Shown: positions 1 to 23,279 of the stretch, in pieces
Position numbering within the stretch: position 1 is the stretch's first letter
Layout: each line of letters opens with the position of its first letter
Assembly (NCBI RefSeq): GCF_006335015.1
Contig: NZ_VDGT01000010.1
Coordinates: 62,001 to 126,000, forward strand
Source: Streptomyces sedi
GTDB taxonomy: Bacteria; Actinomycetota; Actinomycetes; Streptomycetales; Streptomycetaceae
Length of the DNA: 64,000 bases
Reading direction: 5' to 3'
Notes under the pieces: model-generated
Seen by the model: the letters and a program-made list of their open reading frames with translations, nothing else
The model's database searches: none
What the model was told of the DNA's origin: nothing
Position numbers and translations under genes: made by a program

Positions 1-338
1 TCCTCCATCACGATGTCCCCCACGAACACCGCGCGCAGCGAGGTCAGCCGGTCCCGCGCCCCCGCGATCGCCGCCAGCACCCCCGTCGCGTAGTTCTCGT
101 AGGATTCGCCCCAGGAGCCGACCACCAGCGCCCGCACCCCGCTCGGGTCGACCGCGTCGAGGAAGCGGGCGAACATGTCCTCCCACGGCTCCTCCGGGTC
201 GTAGGCCCCGACGTCGATCCGCCAGGCGGCGGCGTCGGCCGCCGGCAGCGCTGACCGGTCCACCGGCCCACCCGAGAGCTTCGGAAACTCGCAGACCGGC
301 AACCCGTGGAACTCTTCCTGGTGTCCGTGAATGGTCAT
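1..338 (-). CDS. STM4015-like leucine-rich protein, partial (3' end missing)
   Basis: This reading frame opens at an ATG complementary to 336-338 and runs off the left edge after 112 codons, so the C-terminus is not visible. Its N-terminus (MTIHGHQEEFHGLPV) is clearly paralogous to the next gene (MAIYQHMEEFHGLSV). The two share the blocks LPAADA-AWR, FARFL-AVD-GVRAL and RDRL-LRAVFVGDIV in the same order. The family (STM4015 type) is known for leucine-rich-repeat-like C-terminal regions, but its biochemical role is not established. The two copies lie in tandem on the same strand, each with its own promoter-like element, which points to gene duplication rather than one operon. Confidence 0.85.
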   Translation of the reverse strand, partial: MTIHGHQEEFHGLPVCEFPKLSGGPVDRSALPAADAAAWRIDVGAYDPEEPWEDMFARFLDAVDPSGVRALVVGSWGESYENYATGVLAAIAGARDRLTSLRAVFVGDIVME

Positions 339-394
339 GCCGCGCCCGCTCCTCGTTGTTGTGTGGGCTCGCCCGGGTGCCGGGCGATACGCAT

Positions 395-3078: not shown

Positions 3079-4194
3079 CTACCAGCCGGCGGCGGGGAGC
3101 ACGGTGCCGTCGTAGTCGAAGACGGCCTGGTTCTCCCAGGCGTTGCCGGAGGAGGGGTCGGCGGGGTCCCAGCCGTTGCCGGGCACCGCGGTCCAGGCGG
3201 GTTCCCAGTAGTAGACGCCGAGGCCCCGGCCGCCGGGGACGCCGGCGACCACGGAGGCGATGTCCCGGACCCAGCGCCGTTGGCCCTCGGGGGTGGCCGG
3301 GTAGCCGGAGACCAGCTGGGACTCCTCGCCGATGATGTCGGCGTGGCCGTCGTCGCTGCCGAGGGTGAACGGGTAGGCCGTCTCGACGACGACCACGTCC
3401 CGGTCGTAACGGGCCACCAGGTCACGCAGGTTGGCGTCCAGCTCCGGCAGCGTGCCGTGCCAGTAGCCGTAGAAGGAGAGCGCGATCACCTCGAACGGCA
3501 CCGCGCGGGCGGTGATGTGGTCGAACCACCAGCGGAAGAGCGCGTTGTCACCGCCCTCCGCGAGGTGCAGCGCCCTGCGGGTGCCCGGCGACGCCTCGGC
3601 CGCGGCCTCGGCGGCGACGGTGAGCAGCGACGCCAGCCGGTCGAAGTCGTCGGTGGAGCCGTCGGGCCAGAGCATTCCGGCGTTGATCTCGTTGCCGAGC
3701 TGGACCATGGCCGCCGGGGTGCCCTGGGCGACCAGCGCGCCCAGCACCTCGGAGGTGTGCGCGGCGACGGCCCGGTCGAGGCCGGCGGCGTCCAGACCTT
3801 CCCAGGCGGCTGGCTTGTGCTGCTGGCCCGGGTCGGCCCAGCTGTCGGAGTAGTGGAAGTCGACCAGCGTCTCCATCCCCAACGCCGATGCGCGCCGGGC
3901 GAGTTCGCAGATCCGGGCGGTGTCGTGGTAGCCGTCCGGAGAGTCGACCCAGACCTTGAGCCGGACCCGGTTGGCGCCGTTCTCGGCGAGGATGGTCAGC
4001 GCGTCGGCGGTGGAGCCGTCGGCGCGGCGGAAGACCGCGCCCAGGTCCTCCGCCTTGGGCAGCGAGGAGACGTCGATCCCTCGGATCGGTCCGTCGGCGG
4101 CGTGGGCCGGGCCGCCGGAGAGCAGCGGCCAGGCCATCGGCGCGGCCAGGGCGAGGCCCGCTCCGCGGAGCAGGGTTCTTCTGCTGGTGCTCAT
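3079..4194 (-). CDS. ganB: Secreted endo-beta-1,4-galactanase, GH53
   Basis: This 371-aa enzyme should hydrolyse beta-1,4-galactan side chains of pectin (type I arabinogalactan) outside the cell. It starts with a Tat-type signal (RRTLLRG at residues 5-11, hydrophobic core, likely cleavage after PAHA near residue 32). The GH53 barrel follows. The acid/base is probably E169 in QLGNEIN, and the nucleophile is probably E271 in VVETAYPF. The family signature VDFHYSDSWADPGQQ is at ~111-125. A GGGAG ribosome site precedes the ATG at 4194. It lies 117 bases downstream of the GH42 gene on the same strand, so the two are probably co-transcribed under the LacI operator at 6386. Arabinogalactan endo-galactanases are usually 340-400 aa, which fits. 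Confidence 0.92.
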   Translation of the reverse strand: MSTSRRTLLRGAGLALAAPMAWPLLSGGPAHAADGPIRGIDVSSLPKAEDLGAVFRRADGSTADALTILAENGANRVRLKVWVDSPDGYHDTARICELARRASALGMETLVDFHYSDSWADPGQQHKPAAWEGLDAAGLDRAVAAHTSEVLGALVAQGTPAAMVQLGNEINAGMLWPDGSTDDFDRLASLLTVAAEAAAEASPGTRRALHLAEGGDNALFRWWFDHITARAVPFEVIALSFYGYWHGTLPELDANLRDLVARYDRDVVVVETAYPFTLGSDDGHADIIGEESQLVSGYPATPEGQRRWVRDIASVVAGVPGGRGLGVYYWEPAWTAVPGNGWDPADPSSGNAWENQAVFDYDGTVLPAAGW

Positions 4195-4311
4195 GAGGAA
4201 CTCCCTCTGTCGGGCACGGCACGCGCGTCGTCGGGGTCGCGCGTGTGCGTGCTTTCGCGTCGTACCGGTCGTTCGGTCATCGCGGTCCAGCCCCGGCCCA
4301 CGCCGACGTGT

Positions 4312-6366
4312 TCAGCCGTCCAGGCGCACCACCCGCACCCCGCCGGCCGGGACGGTGAGCTTGCCGCTGATCCGCTCTCCGGTCAGCAGCTCCTCGCCGG
4401 AGTCCGCGCCGGAACGGGAGCCGGCGGCGCCGGACAGCGGCAGCGTCGCCTCCGCGTCGCGGTGGTTGATCGCGAACAGGTAGTCGCCGCGCTCGCCCCG
4501 CCGGCGCACCAGCTCCAGGTCGTGCGGCAGCTCGTCGCGCTCGGGCAGCCCGGCGTCGGCCGCGGCCCGCGCCAGCACGGCGTCGATGTCGGCGCGCCCG
4601 AGGCGCGCGGAGACATACCAGGCCGCGCCCTCACCCAGCGCGTGCCGGGTCACCGCGGCACCGCCGGCGGCCGGCCCGTCCGCGTACTCCCACACCGACT
4701 CGGCGCCCCGGAGCACCACGGTCTCCGCCCAGGTGTCGGCGGCGAGTTCGGGCCCGCCGCCGGGCGCGGTCAGCCGCACCTCGCGCCCGGCGTGCAGCGG
4801 CTGGAACTCCTCGACGGTCAGTCCCAGCACCTCGCGCAGCGCGCCCGGGTGCGGCCCGGGGTGCACGGCGTCGTGCGTGTCGACGATCCCGGAGAAGTAG
4901 GAGACCAGCAGCGTCCCGCCGCCCTCCACGTAGGCGCGCAGCCGCTCGCCGGTGCCCTCGGTCGCCAGGTAGAGCGCCGGGACCACGACCAGCGGGTAGC
5001 GGTCCAGCTCGTCGGCGTCCGGCGCCACGAAGTCGACGGTCAGATGCCGGTCGAACAGCACCGCGTAGTACGCCTCGGCGCGTTCCCGCGTGTCCAGCTC
5101 CTCGCTGGGCCGCCACTCCAGCTTCTGCGCCCACCAGGACTGCCAGTCCCAGACGACCGCCACGTCGGCGACCGTGCGGCTGTCCTTCAGCTCGGCGAGG
5201 CGGCCGATGTCGGCGCCGAGCTGGACGACCTCGCGCCAGACGCGGCTGTCCGTGCCGGCGTGCGGCAGCATCGCCGAGTGGTACTTCTCGGCGCCCGAGC
5301 GCGAGGCCCGCCACTGGAAGAACATGGCGCCCTCGGAGCCGCGCGCCACGTGCGCCAGGCTGTTGCGGGCCATCTCCCCCGGGCGCTTGGCGATGCCGCG
5401 CCGCTGCCAGTTGACGCCGCTCGTCGAGTGCTCCAGCAGCAGCCAGGGCCGGCCCTCGCCGACGGCGCGGCTGAGGTCGGCGGCCATGGAGAGGTTGATG
5501 TGGTTCCGGTCCTCCTCGGCGACCAGGTAGTGGTCGTTGGTGACCAGGTCCACCTCGCGGCCCCAGGCCCAGTAGTCGATCGTGTCGCACTGGGTCGGCG
5601 AGACCATGAAGTTGGTGGTCACCGGGACTCCGGGGGACAGCTGGTGGAGCAGGTCGCGCTCGTGCTGGAAGTTCGCCAGGGCGCTGTCGCTGGCGAAGCG
5701 CGCGAAGTCGAGGCGCTGCGCCGGGTTGGCCACGGTCGGGGTGAGCCGCGGCGGCTGGATCTCGTCCCACTCGCCGTAGATCTGGCCCCAGAACGCCGTG
5801 CCCCAGGCCGTGTTGACCGCGTCCAGGTCGCCGTACCTGTCGGCCAGCCAGCGCCTGAAGTGCGCGGCCGAGACGTCGCAGTAGCACTCCAGCACGGGCA
5901 CGCCGTACTCGTTGTGTACGTGCCACATGGCGAGCGCCGGGTGGTCGCCGTAGCGTTCGCCGAGCGCCGTGGTGACGCGGGTGATCGCCTCGCGGTAGGC
6001 GGGCGAGCTGTGGCAGATCGCGCCGCGCGAGCCGAAGGCCCAGCGGGTGCCGTCCCTGCTTACCGGCAGCGCCTCGGGGTGCTCGCGGTAGAACCAGGCG
6101 GGCGGCACGACCGTGGGCGTCGCCAGGTCGATCCTGATGCCGCCCTCGTCCAGCAGCGCGATCACCCGGTCCAGCCAGCCGAAGTCGAACTCGCCCCGGC
6201 GGGGCTCGATCCGGGCCCAGCTGAAGATGCCGAGGCTGACCAGGTTGACGCCGGCCTCCCGCATCAGCGCGACGTCCTCGCGCCACACCTCCTCCGGCCA
6301 CTGCTCCGGGTTGTAGTCGCCGCCGAAGGCGAGTCGGCCCAGCCCCCTGGGGGTGGCGTGCGGCAT
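4312..6366 (-). CDS. ganA: Cytoplasmic beta-galactosidase, GH42
   Basis: This 684-aa protein matches GH42 enzymes in length and order: an N-terminal TIM barrel (GGDYNPEQWP at 15-24), a Rossmann-like trimerisation domain and a small beta domain at the end. The acid/base is probably E153 in WHVHNEYG and the nucleophile E312 in LLLEHSTSG. No signal peptide is present, so it acts in the cytoplasm on imported galacto-oligosaccharides made by the GH53 enzyme. The ATG at 6366 is chosen because the family signature starts soon after it; the upstream in-frame codons overlap the operator region. It is divergent from the ABC transporter genes. Confidence 0.93.
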   Translation of the reverse strand: MPHATPRGLGRLAFGGDYNPEQWPEEVWREDVALMREAGVNLVSLGIFSWARIEPRRGEFDFGWLDRVIALLDEGGIRIDLATPTVVPPAWFYREHPEALPVSRDGTRWAFGSRGAICHSSPAYREAITRVTTALGERYGDHPALAMWHVHNEYGVPVLECYCDVSAAHFRRWLADRYGDLDAVNTAWGTAFWGQIYGEWDEIQPPRLTPTVANPAQRLDFARFASDSALANFQHERDLLHQLSPGVPVTTNFMVSPTQCDTIDYWAWGREVDLVTNDHYLVAEEDRNHINLSMAADLSRAVGEGRPWLLLEHSTSGVNWQRRGIAKRPGEMARNSLAHVARGSEGAMFFQWRASRSGAEKYHSAMLPHAGTDSRVWREVVQLGADIGRLAELKDSRTVADVAVVWDWQSWWAQKLEWRPSEELDTRERAEAYYAVLFDRHLTVDFVAPDADELDRYPLVVVPALYLATEGTGERLRAYVEGGGTLLVSYFSGIVDTHDAVHPGPHPGALREVLGLTVEEFQPLHAGREVRLTAPGGGPELAADTWAETVVLRGAESVWEYADGPAAGGAAVTRHALGEGAAWYVSARLGRADIDAVLARAAADAGLPERDELPHDLELVRRRGERGDYLFAINHRDAEATLPLSGAAGSRSGADSGEELLTGERISGKLTVPAGGVRVVRLDG

Positions 6367-6385
6367 GAGTACCTCTCCCGATCCA

Positions 6386-6399
6386 TGTGAACGTGCACA
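6386..6399 (-). promoter_or_regulatory. LacI-type operator upstream of the GH42/GH53 arm
   Basis: TGTGAACGTGCACA is the exact reverse complement of the site at 6472-6485, so one dimeric repressor could recognise both. It lies 20 bases upstream of the GH42 start. The central CG and the flanking TG/CA are typical of LacI-family sites. The likely binder is the LacI protein encoded at 9622. Confidence 0.7.
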
Positions 6400-6443
6400 G
6401 CCTGTCGCACTGCGCTTCTCCAAGAAACCTCAATCACTAACGG

Positions 6444-6485
6444 TTGACAAGAGCGTGAAACATTTCTTCACTGTGCACGTTCACA
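6444..6485 (+). promoter_or_regulatory. Promoter plus LacI operator for the galactan transporter operon
   Basis: A consensus -35 hexamer TTGACA (6444-6449) is followed 17 bases later by TTCACT (6467-6472), a reasonable -10. The operator TGTGCACGTTCACA (6472-6485) begins on the last base of that -10 and covers the expected start point. Bound repressor would block initiation. The start codon of the binding-protein gene is 34 bases further on. Confidence 0.65.
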
Positions 6486-6519
6486 GAATCAGCCACAGAG
6501 CCACAGTCCGGGAGGGCCC

Positions 6520-7800
6520 ATGCGCCACCGCGCGTTCGCCATCGGCGCCGCGACGCTGCTGGCGGTCACCACGCTCGGGGGCTGCGGCTCCTCGGACGAC
6601 GGGACCGTCCGCCTCACCTACTGGGCGTGGGCGCCCGGGATGGAGGAGGTCGTCGCGCTCTGGAACGAGGCCAACCCCGACATCCAGGTCACGGTCAAGA
6701 AGCAGGCCAGCGGCGACGAACTGGTCACCAAGACGGTGACCGCCGCCCAGGCCGGCACCGCGCCCGACCTGGTCCAGGCCGAGTACCAGGCGCTGCCGAC
6801 CCTCGCCAGCAACAACGTCACCGCCGACATCCGCGCGGAGGTCGCCGACGTCGAGGAACGTTTCACCCCCGCCGTCTGGCAGCAGGTCACCCTCGGCACC
6901 GACGCGGTCTACGCGCTGCCCCAGGACTCGGGGCCGCTGCTGTTCTTCTACCGGGCCGACCTGTTCGAGGAGTTCGGCCTGGACGTGCCGACGACCTGGG
7001 ACGAGTTCGCCGACACCGCGCGCGAGCTGAACGAGGTCGCGCCCGACCGCGACCTGACCACGTTCTCCGCCAACGACGCCGGCCTCTTCGCGGGCCTGGC
7101 GCAGCAGGCCGGCGCCCAGTGGTGGACCACGGAGACGGACCGCTGGCGGGTGGCGATCGACGACGAGGCGGGGCGGAGGGTGAGCGCCTTCTGGGAGGAG
7201 CTGGTGGCCGAGGAGCTGGTCGACAACCAGCCGATGTACACGCCCGCCTGGAACCAGGCGCTCAACGAGGGCCGGCAGATCGCCTGGATCGCCGGCGTCT
7301 GGGCGCCCGGCACGCTGGCCACCGCCGCCCCCGACACCGAGGGCCGCTGGGCGGCGGCGCCGCTGCCGCAGTGGGAGGCGGGCGAGAACGCGACCGGCAG
7401 CTGGGGCGGCTCCAGCACCGCCGTGACCACGGACACCGACCATCTGCCCGAGGCCGCCGAGTTCGCGACCTGGCTGAACACCGACCCCGAGGCGCTCACC
7501 GCGCTCGTCCAGCAGGGCGGCATCTACCCGGCGGCCACCGACGCCCGCACCGGAGGGGCGCTGGCGGAGCCGCCGCCGTTCTTCGCCAACCAGCCCGACT
7601 TCTACGAGACGGTCGCCGAGGTGGCCGAGGGCGCGGCGCCCGCCGCCTGGGGCCCCAACGTCACCGTCGCCTACAGCGCGTTCAACAACGCCTTCGGCTC
7701 GGCGGCCGGCCGCCGGGCCGGATTCGAGGAGGCCCTGGCCGTGATGCAGCGGACCACGTTCGACGACATGGACCGGCTCGGCTTCGAGGTGGTCCAGTGA
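6520..7800 (+). CDS. Sugar ABC transporter binding lipoprotein
   Basis: This 426-aa protein has a lipoprotein signal ending in LGGC, with Cys22 as the acylated residue. It should sit on the outer face of the membrane. The mature part has the family-1 solute-binding layout (VRLTYWAWAPG, PDIQVTVKKQ, GTAPDLVQAEYQ, then an LPQDSGPLLFFYRADLFEEFG hinge region around residues 130-150). From its position beside GH53 and GH42 genes the ligand is probably a galacto-oligosaccharide, as for GanS of Bacillus. It is the first gene of the operon and overlaps the permease gene by four bases (GTGA). Confidence 0.88.
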   Translation: MRHRAFAIGAATLLAVTTLGGCGSSDDGTVRLTYWAWAPGMEEVVALWNEANPDIQVTVKKQASGDELVTKTVTAAQAGTAPDLVQAEYQALPTLASNNVTADIRAEVADVEERFTPAVWQQVTLGTDAVYALPQDSGPLLFFYRADLFEEFGLDVPTTWDEFADTARELNEVAPDRDLTTFSANDAGLFAGLAQQAGAQWWTTETDRWRVAIDDEAGRRVSAFWEELVAEELVDNQPMYTPAWNQALNEGRQIAWIAGVWAPGTLATAAPDTEGRWAAAPLPQWEAGENATGSWGGSSTAVTTDTDHLPEAAEFATWLNTDPEALTALVQQGGIYPAATDARTGGALAEPPPFFANQPDFYETVAEVAEGAAPAAWGPNVTVAYSAFNNAFGSAAGRRAGFEEALAVMQRTTFDDMDRLGFEVVQ

Positions 7801-8735
7801 GCGCCCCCGACCGCCCCCGCCGCCGGCGCGGCGCCTCGGTCCGCTCGGCGCCCTACGGGTTCCTCGCGCCGACCGCCGTGCTCTTTCTGCTGTTCTTCGC
7901 GCTGCCGATCGGCTACGCGCTCTATCTCAGCGTGCGGAAGGTCCAGATCAAGGGCCTCGGCCTCGGCCCCGACGGCCGCGAGGAGGTGTGGGCCGGGCTG
8001 GCCAACTACCGCGGGGCGCTGACCGACTCGGAGCTGCTGGACGGCGCGCTGCGGGTGCTCGGCTACGGCGCGATCGTGGTGCCGGTGATGCTGGGCCTGG
8101 CGCTGTTCTTCGCGCTGCTGCTGGACGACGAGCAGGTGCGGGGGCGGCGGTTCGGCCGGTTGACGATCTTCCTGCCGTACGCCGTTCCCGGGGTGATCGC
8201 CGCGCTGCTGTGGGGCTTCCTGTATCTGCCGTCGGTCAGCCCCGTCACGGACGCGCTGGAGACGCTGGGGCTGCCGGCGCCGGACTTCCTGACGGGGCCG
8301 GCGCTCTACGGCTCGCTGGCGAACATCGCGATCTGGGGCGGCACCGGTTTCAACATGATCGTGATCTACACCGCGCTGCGCGCCCTCCCCGTGGAGGTGC
8401 GGGAGGCGGCGCGGCTGGACGGCTGCACGCCGTTGCAGACGGCGCTGCGGGTCAAGATCCCGATGGTGCTGCCCTCGCTGGTGCTCACCTTCTTCTTCTC
8501 GATCATCGCCACCCTCCAGGTCTTCAACGAGCCGACGACACTGCGGCCGTTGACCAACAACCTGTCCACGACGTGGTCCCCGCTGATGAAGGTCTACCAG
8601 GACGCGTTCACCGGCGGCGACATCCACTCGGCCGCCGCGACGGCCGTGGTGATCGCGCTGGTCACGCTCGTGCTGTCGTTCGGCTTCCTGCGGCTGGCCA
8701 CCGCCCGCACCCGCCGCGAGGAGAACGCCCGATGA
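7797..8735 (+). CDS. Sugar ABC permease, MalF type
   Basis: This 312-aa integral membrane protein has about six transmembrane segments, starting near PTAVLFLLFFALPIGYALYL (residues ~25-44). The cytoplasmic EAA loop appears as EAARLDGCTPLQTALRVKIP and docks the ATPase subunit. The GTG start overlaps the binding-protein stop (GTGA), so translation is coupled. By analogy to the gan locus of Bacillus it corresponds to GanP. No ATPase gene follows in the operon, which is normal for Streptomyces, where the shared ATPase MsiK serves many sugar importers. Confidence 0.88.
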   Translation: MSAPDRPRRRRGASVRSAPYGFLAPTAVLFLLFFALPIGYALYLSVRKVQIKGLGLGPDGREEVWAGLANYRGALTDSELLDGALRVLGYGAIVVPVMLGLALFFALLLDDEQVRGRRFGRLTIFLPYAVPGVIAALLWGFLYLPSVSPVTDALETLGLPAPDFLTGPALYGSLANIAIWGGTGFNMIVIYTALRALPVEVREAARLDGCTPLQTALRVKIPMVLPSLVLTFFFSIIATLQVFNEPTTLRPLTNNLSTTWSPLMKVYQDAFTGGDIHSAAATAVVIALVTLVLSFGFLRLATARTRREENAR

Positions 8736-19164: not shown

Positions 19165-20019
19165 GTGCCCAGACCAAAGAAGCGCAGGTCAAACGGCCCC
19201 GACAGTCAGCATGACGAACGCCCGATGAACGATCTCGAATACCTCGGCGGGGAACTCAAGGCAGCCCGCATCAAACGCAAGTTGACGCAGACCCGCTACA
19301 GCCAGGCCACGGGTTACTCTCAGAGCTATGTCTCCAAAGTCGAGTTGGGCGTCATCGTCCCCTCGGCCGACTACGCGCGGAAGTGCGACCTGGTCCTCGG
19401 TACGAACGGCCTCTTCGCGCGCCTGAGGGAGCGACTACTCGAACGCGGCCATCCCAGCTGGTTCGCGCCGTACGCGAAGATGGAGGCCGAAGCGGAGGAG
19501 ATCCTGATCTACCGGCTGTCCACGTTGCCGGGGTTGTTGCAGACTCCCGAGTACGCGCGAGCGCTGTTCCGGGCAGGTCATCCGCACAAGAGTGACGAGT
19601 GGATCGAACAGCGCGTCAAGAACCGGGTGGACAGAAGAGCCACGTTGGAGGAGAGCAACCCCGCACACCTGTGGGCCATCGTGCACGAGGGCGCTCTCCA
19701 TCCGGTCGTCGGTGATCGCGAAACCATGCGTGACCAACTGGAGTTCCTGGTCAGGGCGACGGAGATGCCCTCGGTGAAGCTTCAGGTGGTGCCCTTCTCG
19801 ATCGGCGCCCCTCCTGGTAACGATCCGTTCTCTCTGCTGGATCTGCCGACCGGACGCTCCGTGGTCTACACGGACACCGCGCTCGGCGGCCAAATGAGTG
19901 AGGACGAGGAACGTGTACAGTCCTGCCGCGGAATGTTCGACCTGCTGCGGGCGGAGGCCCTGAGTCCGAGAGAGTCGATCGGGCTCATCCGGAAAATCGC
20001 GAGGGAAACACATGGCTGA
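19165..20019 (+). CDS. XRE regulator with DUF5753 domain
   Basis: This 284-aa protein has an N-terminal helix-turn-helix (LKAARIKRKLTQTRYSQATG, then YVSKVELGVIVPS) and a DUF5753 domain over the last ~190 residues (LIYRLSTLPGLLQTPEYARA, VKNRVDRRATLEE, LQVVPFSIGA). This is the common streptomycete pair in which the XRE/DUF5753 protein precedes a DUF397 gene; some members are described as Scr1-type antitoxin-like. The GTG at 19165 follows CGGAGAAA; an internal ATG at 19225 is an alternative. It overlaps the DUF397 gene by 8 bases. Confidence 0.88.
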   Translation: MPRPKKRRSNGPDSQHDERPMNDLEYLGGELKAARIKRKLTQTRYSQATGYSQSYVSKVELGVIVPSADYARKCDLVLGTNGLFARLRERLLERGHPSWFAPYAKMEAEAEEILIYRLSTLPGLLQTPEYARALFRAGHPHKSDEWIEQRVKNRVDRRATLEESNPAHLWAIVHEGALHPVVGDRETMRDQLEFLVRATEMPSVKLQVVPFSIGAPPGNDPFSLLDLPTGRSVVYTDTALGGQMSEDEERVQSCRGMFDLLRAEALSPRESIGLIRKIARETHG

Positions 20020-20191
20020 CACCAGCTGGCGCAAGTCCAGCTACTCGAACAACCAGGGCGGGGAGTGCCTCGAAGTCCGGGACGACACCCCCGGCTTCAT
20101 CCCCGTCCGCGACAGCAAGGTGCAGGACGGCGACACCCTCACCATCGGTGCGGACGCCTGGACCTCCTTCCTGGAGCACCTCAAGCACTGA
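20012..20191 (+). CDS. DUF397 small protein
   Basis: This 59-aa protein shows the full DUF397 pattern: WRKSSYSNNQGGECLEV, then VPVRDSK-type (IPVRDSKVQDGDTLTIG) and a final AWTSFLEHLK. Partners of XRE/DUF5753 regulators are often of this type and may be toxin-like or signalling proteins that bind the regulator. It starts within the last codons of the XRE gene (8-base overlap), so translation is coupled. A strong hairpin follows within 16 bases of the stop. Confidence 0.88.
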   Translation: MADTSWRKSSYSNNQGGECLEVRDDTPGFIPVRDSKVQDGDTLTIGADAWTSFLEHLKH

Positions 20192-21699: not shown

Positions 21700-22908
21700 C
21701 TAACGGAAGGACGGGACGGGGCGCGTCGGGTCCCCCAGCCAGGGGCGTTGCGTCCCGTCCGCCGTGACCGTCAACCCGAACGCGGCGAGCGGCGGCTCCC
21801 CCTGCTCCCGCCACCAGGCCAGCGCGCGCGTCACCTCGTCCCACAGCCGTCGCTCGCCCGACTGGTGAACGGTCGCGACGCCTGGCTCGGCGTCGTCGCG
21901 GTAGACGACCGAGGCCCAGGCGCGCGAGCCCTCGGTGCGGTCGAAGAACCAGACCGTCGAGTCGTGCGCGTGGGTGTTGAGCAGATGGGTGCACTCCGGC
22001 ATCAGCAGACCGAGGAGGAACGGCTTCTCCGCGTACGGCCGGCCGACGCCGAGGTCGCTGAGGGGGACGGTGGTGGTGGCCGTGTCGGCCTCGCCCGGGT
22101 AGTCACCCACATGATGGGCGAAGAGCTCCCAGTCGAGCCGCTGCGCGCGGAGCTTCATGAAGCCCGCTGTGCGCAGAAAGCTCCCGCTGGCGCTGCCGTC
22201 CTCCGCGACGGTCAGCCGCACCAGCGCGTCCTCGTGGCCGTAGTGGGTGCCCCAGGGAGCCAGGATCACCCCGCCGGGACGGGTCTGCCGCAGCCAGCGG
22301 GTGGGGAGTTGACGGACGCCGGCCGTGACGATCACCCGGTCGTAGGGCGCCCCGTCGGGCCAGCCGTCCCGGCCGTCGCGGCAGACCACCTCGGGGTGGA
22401 GGCCGGCGGCGCGCAGGTTCGCCCGGGCACGCGCGGCCACGGCCTCGTCCACCTCGACGGTGACCACGCGCTCGTCGCCGAGGCGGGCCGCGAGCAGACC
22501 CGCGTTCCACCCGGTGCCGGTGCCGATCTCCAGCACCCGCGCCCCGGGGAAGACGTCCAGGGCCGTCAACATCCGCGCGACCAGGGCGGGCATACTCGCC
22601 GAACTGGTCGAAGTGCGGCCCGGCTCCGGCCCGTCGTGCGCGCCGTCGTCCCACTGGGTGGTGACGGGGACGTCGGCGTAGGCGGCACGTTCCCAACCGT
22701 CGGGGTCCGTGCGCCGGTCCACGGGGTGGCTGGCGCCGGTGTCGTGCTCGAAGGGCCAGATCAACTCGGGCAGGAACGCGGCCCGGTCGACGGCGTCGAA
22801 GGCCGGCGCCCAGTCAGCGGCGAGAGCGCCGTACTCGCGCAGGGAACGCGTCAACTCCGCGCGGGCGTCGACGCGTTCCCCCGCGGCCTGGTCAGGCTCG
22901 GTCGTCAC
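21700..22908 (-). CDS. Protein-L-isoaspartate O-methyltransferase-like enzyme
   Basis: This 402-aa protein has a PCMT-type methyltransferase core: SMPALVARMLTALDVFPGA, the SAM motif VLEIGTGTGWNAGLLA, acidic VVTVEVDEAVAARA, and DRVIVTAGVRQLPTRWLRQ. Housekeeping PCMT enzymes are ~210 aa; here an extra ~190-residue C-terminal domain follows. The same extended layout is known among methyltransferases of RiPP clusters (graspetide, lanthipeptide and lasso types) that convert Asp to aspartimide or isoaspartate. The GTG start at 22908 overlaps the stop of a 43-codon gene (GTGA), so the two are coupled. A repair role for damaged proteins is the main alternative. Confidence 0.8.
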   Translation of the reverse strand: MTTEPDQAAGERVDARAELTRSLREYGALAADWAPAFDAVDRAAFLPELIWPFEHDTGASHPVDRRTDPDGWERAAYADVPVTTQWDDGAHDGPEPGRTSTSSASMPALVARMLTALDVFPGARVLEIGTGTGWNAGLLAARLGDERVVTVEVDEAVAARARANLRAAGLHPEVVCRDGRDGWPDGAPYDRVIVTAGVRQLPTRWLRQTRPGGVILAPWGTHYGHEDALVRLTVAEDGSASGSFLRTAGFMKLRAQRLDWELFAHHVGDYPGEADTATTTVPLSDLGVGRPYAEKPFLLGLLMPECTHLLNTHAHDSTVWFFDRTEGSRAWASVVYRDDAEPGVATVHQSGERRLWDEVTRALAWWREQGEPPLAAFGLTVTADGTQRPWLGDPTRPVPSFR

Positions 22909-23036
22909 TTGCGGTGATCTCCACTCCCGTCGGGAACGCTTCCGTCGGGCGGCGGCTCCTCCGGTACCCACGCCCGCCCCGGCAGCGAGTCGCCGGTCTC
23001 GTTCTCGTCGTCATCGGGCTTCTCGTGTTTCCCCAT
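22905..23036 (-). CDS. 43-aa acidic peptide, possible RiPP precursor
   Basis: This short frame starts at an ATG (23036) with GTGGAGG about 6 bases upstream and ends exactly at the methyltransferase start (GTGA overlap). The product begins MGKHEKPDDDENETGD and ends PPPDGSVPDGSGDHRK. It has no signal peptide. It contains two Asp-Gly steps and an Asp-rich front. Asp-Gly is the preferred site for aspartimide formation, and PCMT-like enzymes in RiPP pathways act on such sites. It could also be a small regulatory or accessory protein. No ATP-grasp, lanthionine or lasso gene is adjacent. Confidence 0.6.
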   Translation of the reverse strand: MGKHEKPDDDENETGDSLPGRAWVPEEPPPDGSVPDGSGDHRK

Positions 23037-23081
23037 GGTGCGCCTCCACGGTTCGAGCGGTCCCCCTTCGGGGCCTACGCC

Positions 23082-23096: not shown

Positions 23097-23279
23097 TCCT
23101 GCCAAGCCGAACGACGCCCATGCGCGTGTCTGCGAGCGTTCACCCCAACGAGTCAATCGCCGCGTGACCAGCACGGTTCCGGGACGCCCCGGGCAGCTCG
23201 CCGTTCGGCTCGCGGGTGTGTGCACCATGTCGGATCGGCGATCGTTCCGTCGGTTTCGTTTCCTGTTCGAAGGAGTGCC

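What the first reader, a model, noticed from the sequence alone, without database searches (positions are those of the whole stretch)
21700..23036. Possible new RiPP system: Asp-Gly peptide coupled to a PCMT-like enzyme
A 43-codon gene overlaps (GTGA) an extended isoaspartyl-methyltransferase-like gene. The peptide's tail holds two Asp-Gly steps, the preferred aspartimide sites, and the enzyme has the extra C-terminal domain seen in RiPP-tailoring methyltransferases. No known RiPP core enzyme is next to it, so it would be a minimal or incomplete pathway. A clean operon with nothing else suggests the methylation itself may be the modification.
Basis: partly seen in the sequence, partly recalled or inferred. 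Interest (0 to 1): 0.72.

Follow-up and report, generated by a model that had tools for sequence, protein, structure and literature searches.

The report
Imiditide (type I pamtide) peptide-enzyme pair
A small peptide gene sits directly before the gene of an enzyme that probably turns one of its aspartates into a reactive ring; the pair is real and conserved, but it belongs to a natural-product class described in 2023.

Summary
A 43-codon gene (22905-23036, minus) with a good ribosome-binding site overlaps by GTGA a 402-aa PCMT-type methyltransferase with an extra C-terminal domain (21700-22908, minus). The peptide is a real gene: a Gly/Pro/Asp-rich ORF lies at the start of 69 of 78 homologous methyltransferase genes found in 52 of 199 genomes of the genus (window included), and of 15 of 21 named loci; among close relatives its frame is under purifying selection. 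[quoted passage not shown] Of the two Asp-Gly steps only the first is conserved (Asp31, 37 of 38 subgroup rows; Asp36, 2 of 38), so Asp31 is the predicted site. XRE/DUF5753 regulator genes cluster at these methyltransferase loci: 31 of 61 loci against 0 of 20 control regions, plus the window's own XRE-DUF397 pair. I did not see this stated for pamtides in the two texts I could search; it is in print for the related graspetides. Verdict: new member of a known kind, low to moderate interest.

The parts
22905..23036 (-). Precursor peptide gene, 43 aa, MGKHEKPDDDENETGDSLPGRAWVPEEPPPDGSVPDGSGDHRK; predicted modified residue Asp31 (Asp31-Gly32)
   Evidence: Translation; similar peptides before homologous methyltransferases; Asp31 in 37 of 38 rows of its subgroup; pooled pN/pS 0.36 among relatives, window not included
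21700..22908 (-). PCMT-family methyltransferase (PAMT type), 402 aa, GTG start overlapping the peptide stop; SAM motif EIGTGTG, C-terminal domain about residues 260-402 with WXXXGXP motif (WREQGEP, residues 366-372)
   Evidence: PF01135 E 6.1e-31; TIGR04188 E 2.2e-92, 310.2 bits, under its cut-off of 380; model and 1DL5 match; motif
23037..23049 (-). Ribosome-binding site region of the peptide gene (GTGGAGGCGCACC before ATG)
   Evidence: Read from the sequence
19165..20019 (+). XRE/DUF5753 regulator near the pair; a frequent neighbour of this methyltransferase family, possible regulator (inferred)
   Evidence: PF19054 E 8e-54 with HTH_3; neighbour statistics
20012..20191 (+). DUF397 partner protein of the XRE/DUF5753 regulator, 59 aa, overlapping it
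   Evidence: PF04149 E 2.9e-19

Best explanation
This is an imiditide (type I pamtide) biosynthetic pair. The methyltransferase binds the linear precursor, probably through its C-terminal domain and the charged ends of the peptide, and methylates one Asp side chain, most likely Asp31. The ester is attacked by the backbone nitrogen of Gly32 to give an aspartimide, which can hydrolyse to isoAsp or Asp. Shown here: the gene pair, its conservation, the conserved Asp31-Gly32, the PAMT fold and motif. Inferred from the characterised relatives: the chemistry and the binding mode. Unknown: leader removal, export and biological role.
For: Pair with 4-nt overlap. A Gly/Pro/Asp-rich ORF at 69 of 78 genus and 15 of 21 named methyltransferase homologues (hits). 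Asp31 in 37 of 38 subgroup rows, followed by Gly in 35 of these 37. pN/pS 0.36 among relatives. 43 aa, Gly 14.0%, Pro 16.3%, Asp 16.3% against about 45 aa and 17.3, 16.8, 10.2% for type I precursors (PMC10787088). Acidic N-terminal part and basic HRK end, as described there. WXXXGXP present. Alignment to 1DL5, in PMC10787088 the only solved structure of the clade: Z 25.8, 308 residues, rmsd 6.1. The order of elements after residue 270 (strand, helix, four strands, helix) is the one given for the C-terminal domain, followed by two more strands. No TIGR04187 ATP-grasp in the genome, no ATP-grasp among 18 ORFs scanned between 14829 and 30016.
Against: No product was observed. The review calls imiditides strongly positively charged, but this peptide is net acidic (12 Asp+Glu, 5 Lys+Arg). 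Asp16 is almost as conserved as Asp31 (36 of 38), so the site is not proven. At 15 of 99 loci no candidate precursor reached my score. The best NCBIfam model is the graspetide methyltransferase TIGR04188, below cut-off. The window peptide against six relatives shows a weaker selection signal (pN 0.33-0.38, pS 0.54-0.79). I had no sequence of SpaA or NmaA to compare with.
Confidence: 0.88

Rival explanations
1. The enzyme modifies Asp16 or Asp36 (or more than one Asp) instead of Asp31.
For: Asp16 is Asp in 36 of 38 rows and followed by Gly in 22 of these; Asp36-Gly37 is an aspartimide-prone step present here.
Against: Asp36 is Asp in only 2 of 38 rows; Asp16 is followed by varied residues (G, K, S, E, T, N, H), Ser in the window, whereas Asp31 is followed by Gly in 35 of 37.
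Confidence: 0.18
2. The methyltransferase is an ordinary protein-repair PIMT of extended type and the small ORF is an unrelated or non-coding leader ORF.
For: PF01135 and PIMT models match; the T. maritima PIMT 1DL5 shares the C-terminal extension.
Against: The ORF is conserved as protein and tied to the enzyme over many species; several homologues occur in one genome.
Confidence: 0.05
3. A graspetide or other RiPP pathway in which the methyltransferase is a secondary enzyme and the primary enzyme lies elsewhere in the genome.
For: Best NCBIfam model is TIGR04188, the ATP-grasp system methyltransferase.
Against: Score under that model's cut-off; no TIGR04187 ATP-grasp match in the genome (other primary enzymes were not searched genome-wide); the precursor resembles the two-gene type I precursors.
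Confidence: 0.04

Closest known systems
Type I pamtides / imiditides (SpaA-SpaM of Streptomyces sparsogenes; NmaA-NmaM of Nonomuraea maritima)
   Same: Two genes; about 45-aa Gly/Pro/Asp-rich linear precursor with conserved Asp, acidic start and basic end; PCMT homologue with C-terminal domain and WXXXGXP
Graspimiditides (group 13 graspetides, TIGR04188 methyltransferase)
   Same: Best-matching methyltransferase model; XRE/DUF5753-DUF397 genes nearby
   Different: No ATP-grasp enzyme found here; methyltransferase below the model's cut-off
Cysimiditides / type II pamtides
   Same: Two-gene PAMT system
   Different: No CXXCXGXG zinc motif in the peptide
Thermotoga maritima PIMT (1DL5)
   Same: Catalytic fold plus C-terminal extension
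   Different: Solved as a PIMT; whether it has a precursor gene was not looked at; 23% identity over the structural alignment

Membership tests
Imiditide / type I pamtide | Two-gene cluster of short precursor and PAMT, no primary enzyme of another RiPP class beside it | tested here: met
   18 ORFs between 14829 and 30016 scanned with Pfam; TIGR04187 absent
Imiditide / type I pamtide | Precursor about 45 aa, rich in Gly, Pro, Asp, with conserved Asp near Pro/Gly | tested here: met
   43 aa, G 14.0 / P 16.3 / D 16.3%; Asp31 in PDG, 37 of 38 rows
Imiditide / type I pamtide | Acidic N-terminal and basic C-terminal conserved residues | tested here: met
   DDDENETGD start, HRK end; Lys43 is Lys in 25 of 38 rows, other rows end differently, e.g. 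PPKAV
Imiditide / type I pamtide | PCMT homologue with extra C-terminal domain | tested here: met
   Model pLDDT 94.8 with about 140 residues beyond the PIMT core, element order as published; 1DL5 aligned 15..392 with rmsd 6.1; the domain was not searched by itself
[quoted passage not shown]
   WREQGEP in the window; strict motif in 87 of 103 proteins, some of them partial
Imiditide / type I pamtide | Asp methyl ester, aspartimide or isoAsp on the precursor (+14 / -18 / 0 Da) | not testable with these tools
   Needs expression and mass spectrometry
Imiditide / type I pamtide | Strong positive charge of the precursor (named in the review's conclusion; a described tendency, not a class-defining trait in the texts seen) | tested here: not met
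   12 Asp+Glu against 5 Lys+Arg
Graspetide group 13 | Cognate ATP-grasp ligase | tested here: not met
   No TIGR04187 match in the whole genome
Graspetide group 13 | TIGR04188 methyltransferase above curated cut-off | tested here: not met
   310.2 bits against 380
Type II pamtide / cysimiditide | CXXCXGXG tetracysteine motif in the precursor | tested here: not met
   No cysteine in the peptide

The most novel reading that the evidence does not exclude
The modified peptide is not an antibiotic but an intracellular or exported signal tied to the XRE/DUF5753-DUF397 regulators that cluster at these loci: the reactive aspartimide peptide would be the ligand or target of a regulator family known to control antibiotic production and differentiation in Streptomyces.
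Probability: 0.1. Interest if true: 0.65.

Novelty: new member of a known kind. Interest (0 to 1): 0.24.

Why it matters
As a class this is known chemistry. The additions are a predicted modified residue for a large precursor subgroup, a second similar pair in the same genome, and a statistical link to XRE/DUF5753 regulators. The 2026 review names the link to biological function as the bigger open challenge (passage), and the regulator link gives a testable lead on it.

Tried and rejected
Rejected: a chance ORF; an unrelated ordinary PIMT; a graspetide; a type II pamtide (no Cys). Led nowhere or weak: the peptide matches no Pfam or NCBIfam model at E <= 1; a search with the peptide alone rang in 10 of 150 genus genomes, own included, best foreign E 9.1e-5, and some of these lie in long open frames; the promoter scan found none and one terminator-like site on the plus strand at 23232-23256, 0.4 expected; named and unnamed loci shared no listed stretch of 95% identity, so the unnamed genus could not be named this way. 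The 18 ORFs scanned around the pair include no recognised transporter, but several gave no family at all and may be wrong frames.

Dropped or not pursued: of the 57 named loci only L013-L033 were counted; L034-L037, partial matches, were looked at and showed no such peptide by eye; L038-L069 were not examined. Loci without a candidate by my score (L095, L102, L104, L109, L130, L132, L148, L149, L158; L014, L018, L022, L025, L026, L027) were not pursued; L014 has a plausible peptide that the score misses. Six proteins were left out of the tree (L001, L002, L005, L032, L033, L147). The 38 subgroup rows were picked by a pattern (PG, then W/Y/A, then D followed by G, S or T) that favours the Asp31 column; L024, the one row without Asp there, belongs to another precursor type. 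Identical loci (L094/L113) were counted separately (37 distinct of 38). In one search the rows 1DL5 and 1JG1 are tied (Z 25.8 and 25.3).

Full report
What is there. On the minus strand a 43-codon ORF (22905-23036) runs MGKHEKPDDDENETGDSLPGRAWVPEEPPPDGSVPDGSGDHRK. Its stop overlaps, as GTGA, the GTG start of a 402-aa protein (21700-22908). GGAGG ends 6 nt before the ATG. The larger protein is a PCMT methyltransferase (PF01135, E 6.1e-31). Its best NCBIfam model is TIGR04188, the ATP-grasp-system methyltransferase (E 2.2e-92), but with 310.2 bits it stays below the cut-off of 380. The peptide matches no family model.

The peptide is a real gene. With the methyltransferase as query I found 78 matches at E <= 1e-70 in 52 of 199 genomes of the genus, window included, and 57 loci in a named collection, of which I counted the first 21 listed (L013-L033). 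Around the start of each methyltransferase I took the ORF segment with the best Gly/Pro/Asp score. A score of 5 or more was found at 69 of 78 genus loci (the window scores exactly 5) and 15 of 21 named loci. In 20 control regions 34 of 4838 single ORF segments reach that score; since the best of a few segments was taken per locus, chance would give a few percent. The precursors fall into several families. The window's family reads about D-x-[LH]-P-G-x-P-W...P-D-G...P-x-G-x-G-x-H-R-K. Among 20 relatives in three groups the pooled pN/pS over 29 codons is 0.36. The window itself against six relatives has pN 0.33-0.38 and pS 0.54-0.79, a weaker contrast.

Which Asp. In an alignment of 38 rows (37 distinct) chosen by a pattern, Asp31 is Asp in 37 and followed by Gly in 35 of these. 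Asp16 is Asp in 36, with varied followers. The pattern contains an Asp before G, S or T, so the first figure is partly by construction; the contrast with Asp36 is not. Asp31-Gly32 is the predicted site; Asp16 stays possible.

The enzyme. An AlphaFold2 model from 42 aligned sequences has mean pLDDT 94.8. The best Foldseek match is T. maritima PIMT 1DL5 (E 5.7e-20). VIA-align gives 1DL5 Z 25.8 with 308 residues aligned between model residues 15 and 392, rmsd 6.1, tied in Z with shorter PIMTs, most of which align only up to about residue 258 with rmsd near 2 (one, 1VBF, to 342 with rmsd 5.4). The tool warns that the part after 258 is little tested. The element order there, strand-helix-four strands-helix plus two strands, fits the domain that PMC10787088 reports for RiPP-associated PIMT homologues (section read). 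The WXXXGXP motif named in PMC13001092 (passage) is present as WREQGEP; 87 of 103 proteins examined have the strict motif.

Comparison with what is known. PMC10787088 (abstract, introduction and sections 2.2, 2.3 and 2.5 read) describes 1539 PAMTs in two-gene clusters with 1183 putative precursors, named pamtides. Type I precursors have about 45 aa and are rich in Gly, Pro and Asp, with a conserved Asp near Pro or Gly; most have conserved acidic and basic ends. SpaM gave +14 and -18 Da species on SpaA. PMC13001092 (abstract, imiditide section and passages read) treats imiditides and type I pamtides as one class. The primary JACS 2023 paper is not held and is known to me only through the review. 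The class-defining sequence features that I could test are met, so I file the pair as a member; the chemistry on this peptide is inferred. One described trait does not fit: the peptide is net acidic, while the review speaks of strong positive charges.

A regulator link. Among ORFs of 90 codons or more, the only family besides the methyltransferase and ORFs overlapping it that was shared by more than five of 33 loci was an XRE/DUF5753 regulator (17 of 33, window included). With a profile made from these, it was found at 21 of 40 genus loci, 10 of 21 named loci and the window, and at 0 of 20 control regions about 200 kb from such a locus (Fisher P 1.1e-5 for 31 of 61 against 0 of 20). Of the 20 methyltransferase loci fetched after the link was noticed (L199-L218), 10 have it. 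At the density of the window's own genome (29 DUF5753 genes in 6.6 Mb by Pfam) 3.7 genes would be expected in the searched DNA; 32 were found by my profile. 24 of the 32 lie within 1.3 kb of the methyltransferase ORF, on either side and either strand. Caveats: loci are related, so these numbers overstate independence; the two counts use different models; and 5 of the 31 loci (L018, L027, L208, L215, L218, of which the last three are the places of L130, L104 and L148) have no precursor by my score, so the link is to the methyltransferase family rather than to proven pamtide pairs. The window has such a regulator 1.7 kb from the pair, with its DUF397 partner. The association is in print for group 13 graspetides (PMC13097080, passage) and for actinobacterial ATP-grasp loci (PMC8939145, passages). 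In the main texts of PMC10787088 and PMC13001092 the words XRE, DUF397, regulator and helix-turn-helix do not occur; figures and supplements were not seen and DUF5753 was not among the words. XRE-DUF397 pairs affect antibiotic production and differentiation in S. coelicolor (PMC10364602, abstract). That the regulator acts on, or through, the peptide is my inference only.

Own genome. A second precursor-methyltransferase pair of another precursor family lies at C17 (L004/L220...GDDGHQPGRPIPPPLPDEPDPP...). At C33 there are three PCMT homologues with a pentapeptide-repeat gene between two of them. No graspetide ATP-grasp (TIGR04187) was found.

Verdict. Added here are the predicted site and the regulator statistics.

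Noticed in passing
window 19165-20191 (+): XRE/DUF5753 regulator with overlapping DUF397 gene; this regulator family is enriched next to methyltransferases of this kind.
   Followed up: yes
L220 (own genome C17), stop at 7173, minus strand: Second precursor-methyltransferase pair of another type I-like precursor family in the same genome.
   Followed up: partly
L219 (own genome C33) 3892-8446, minus strand: Three PCMT homologues in a row with a pentapeptide-repeat protein between two of them, beside another XRE/DUF5753 gene; the methyltransferase nearest that gene appears split over two frames.
   Followed up: no
L022 (Actinomadura rubrisoli) 4702-5013: The ORF that overlaps the methyltransferase start looks to me like the end of an ATP-grasp enzyme, so this relative may be a graspetide locus (not tested).
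   Followed up: no
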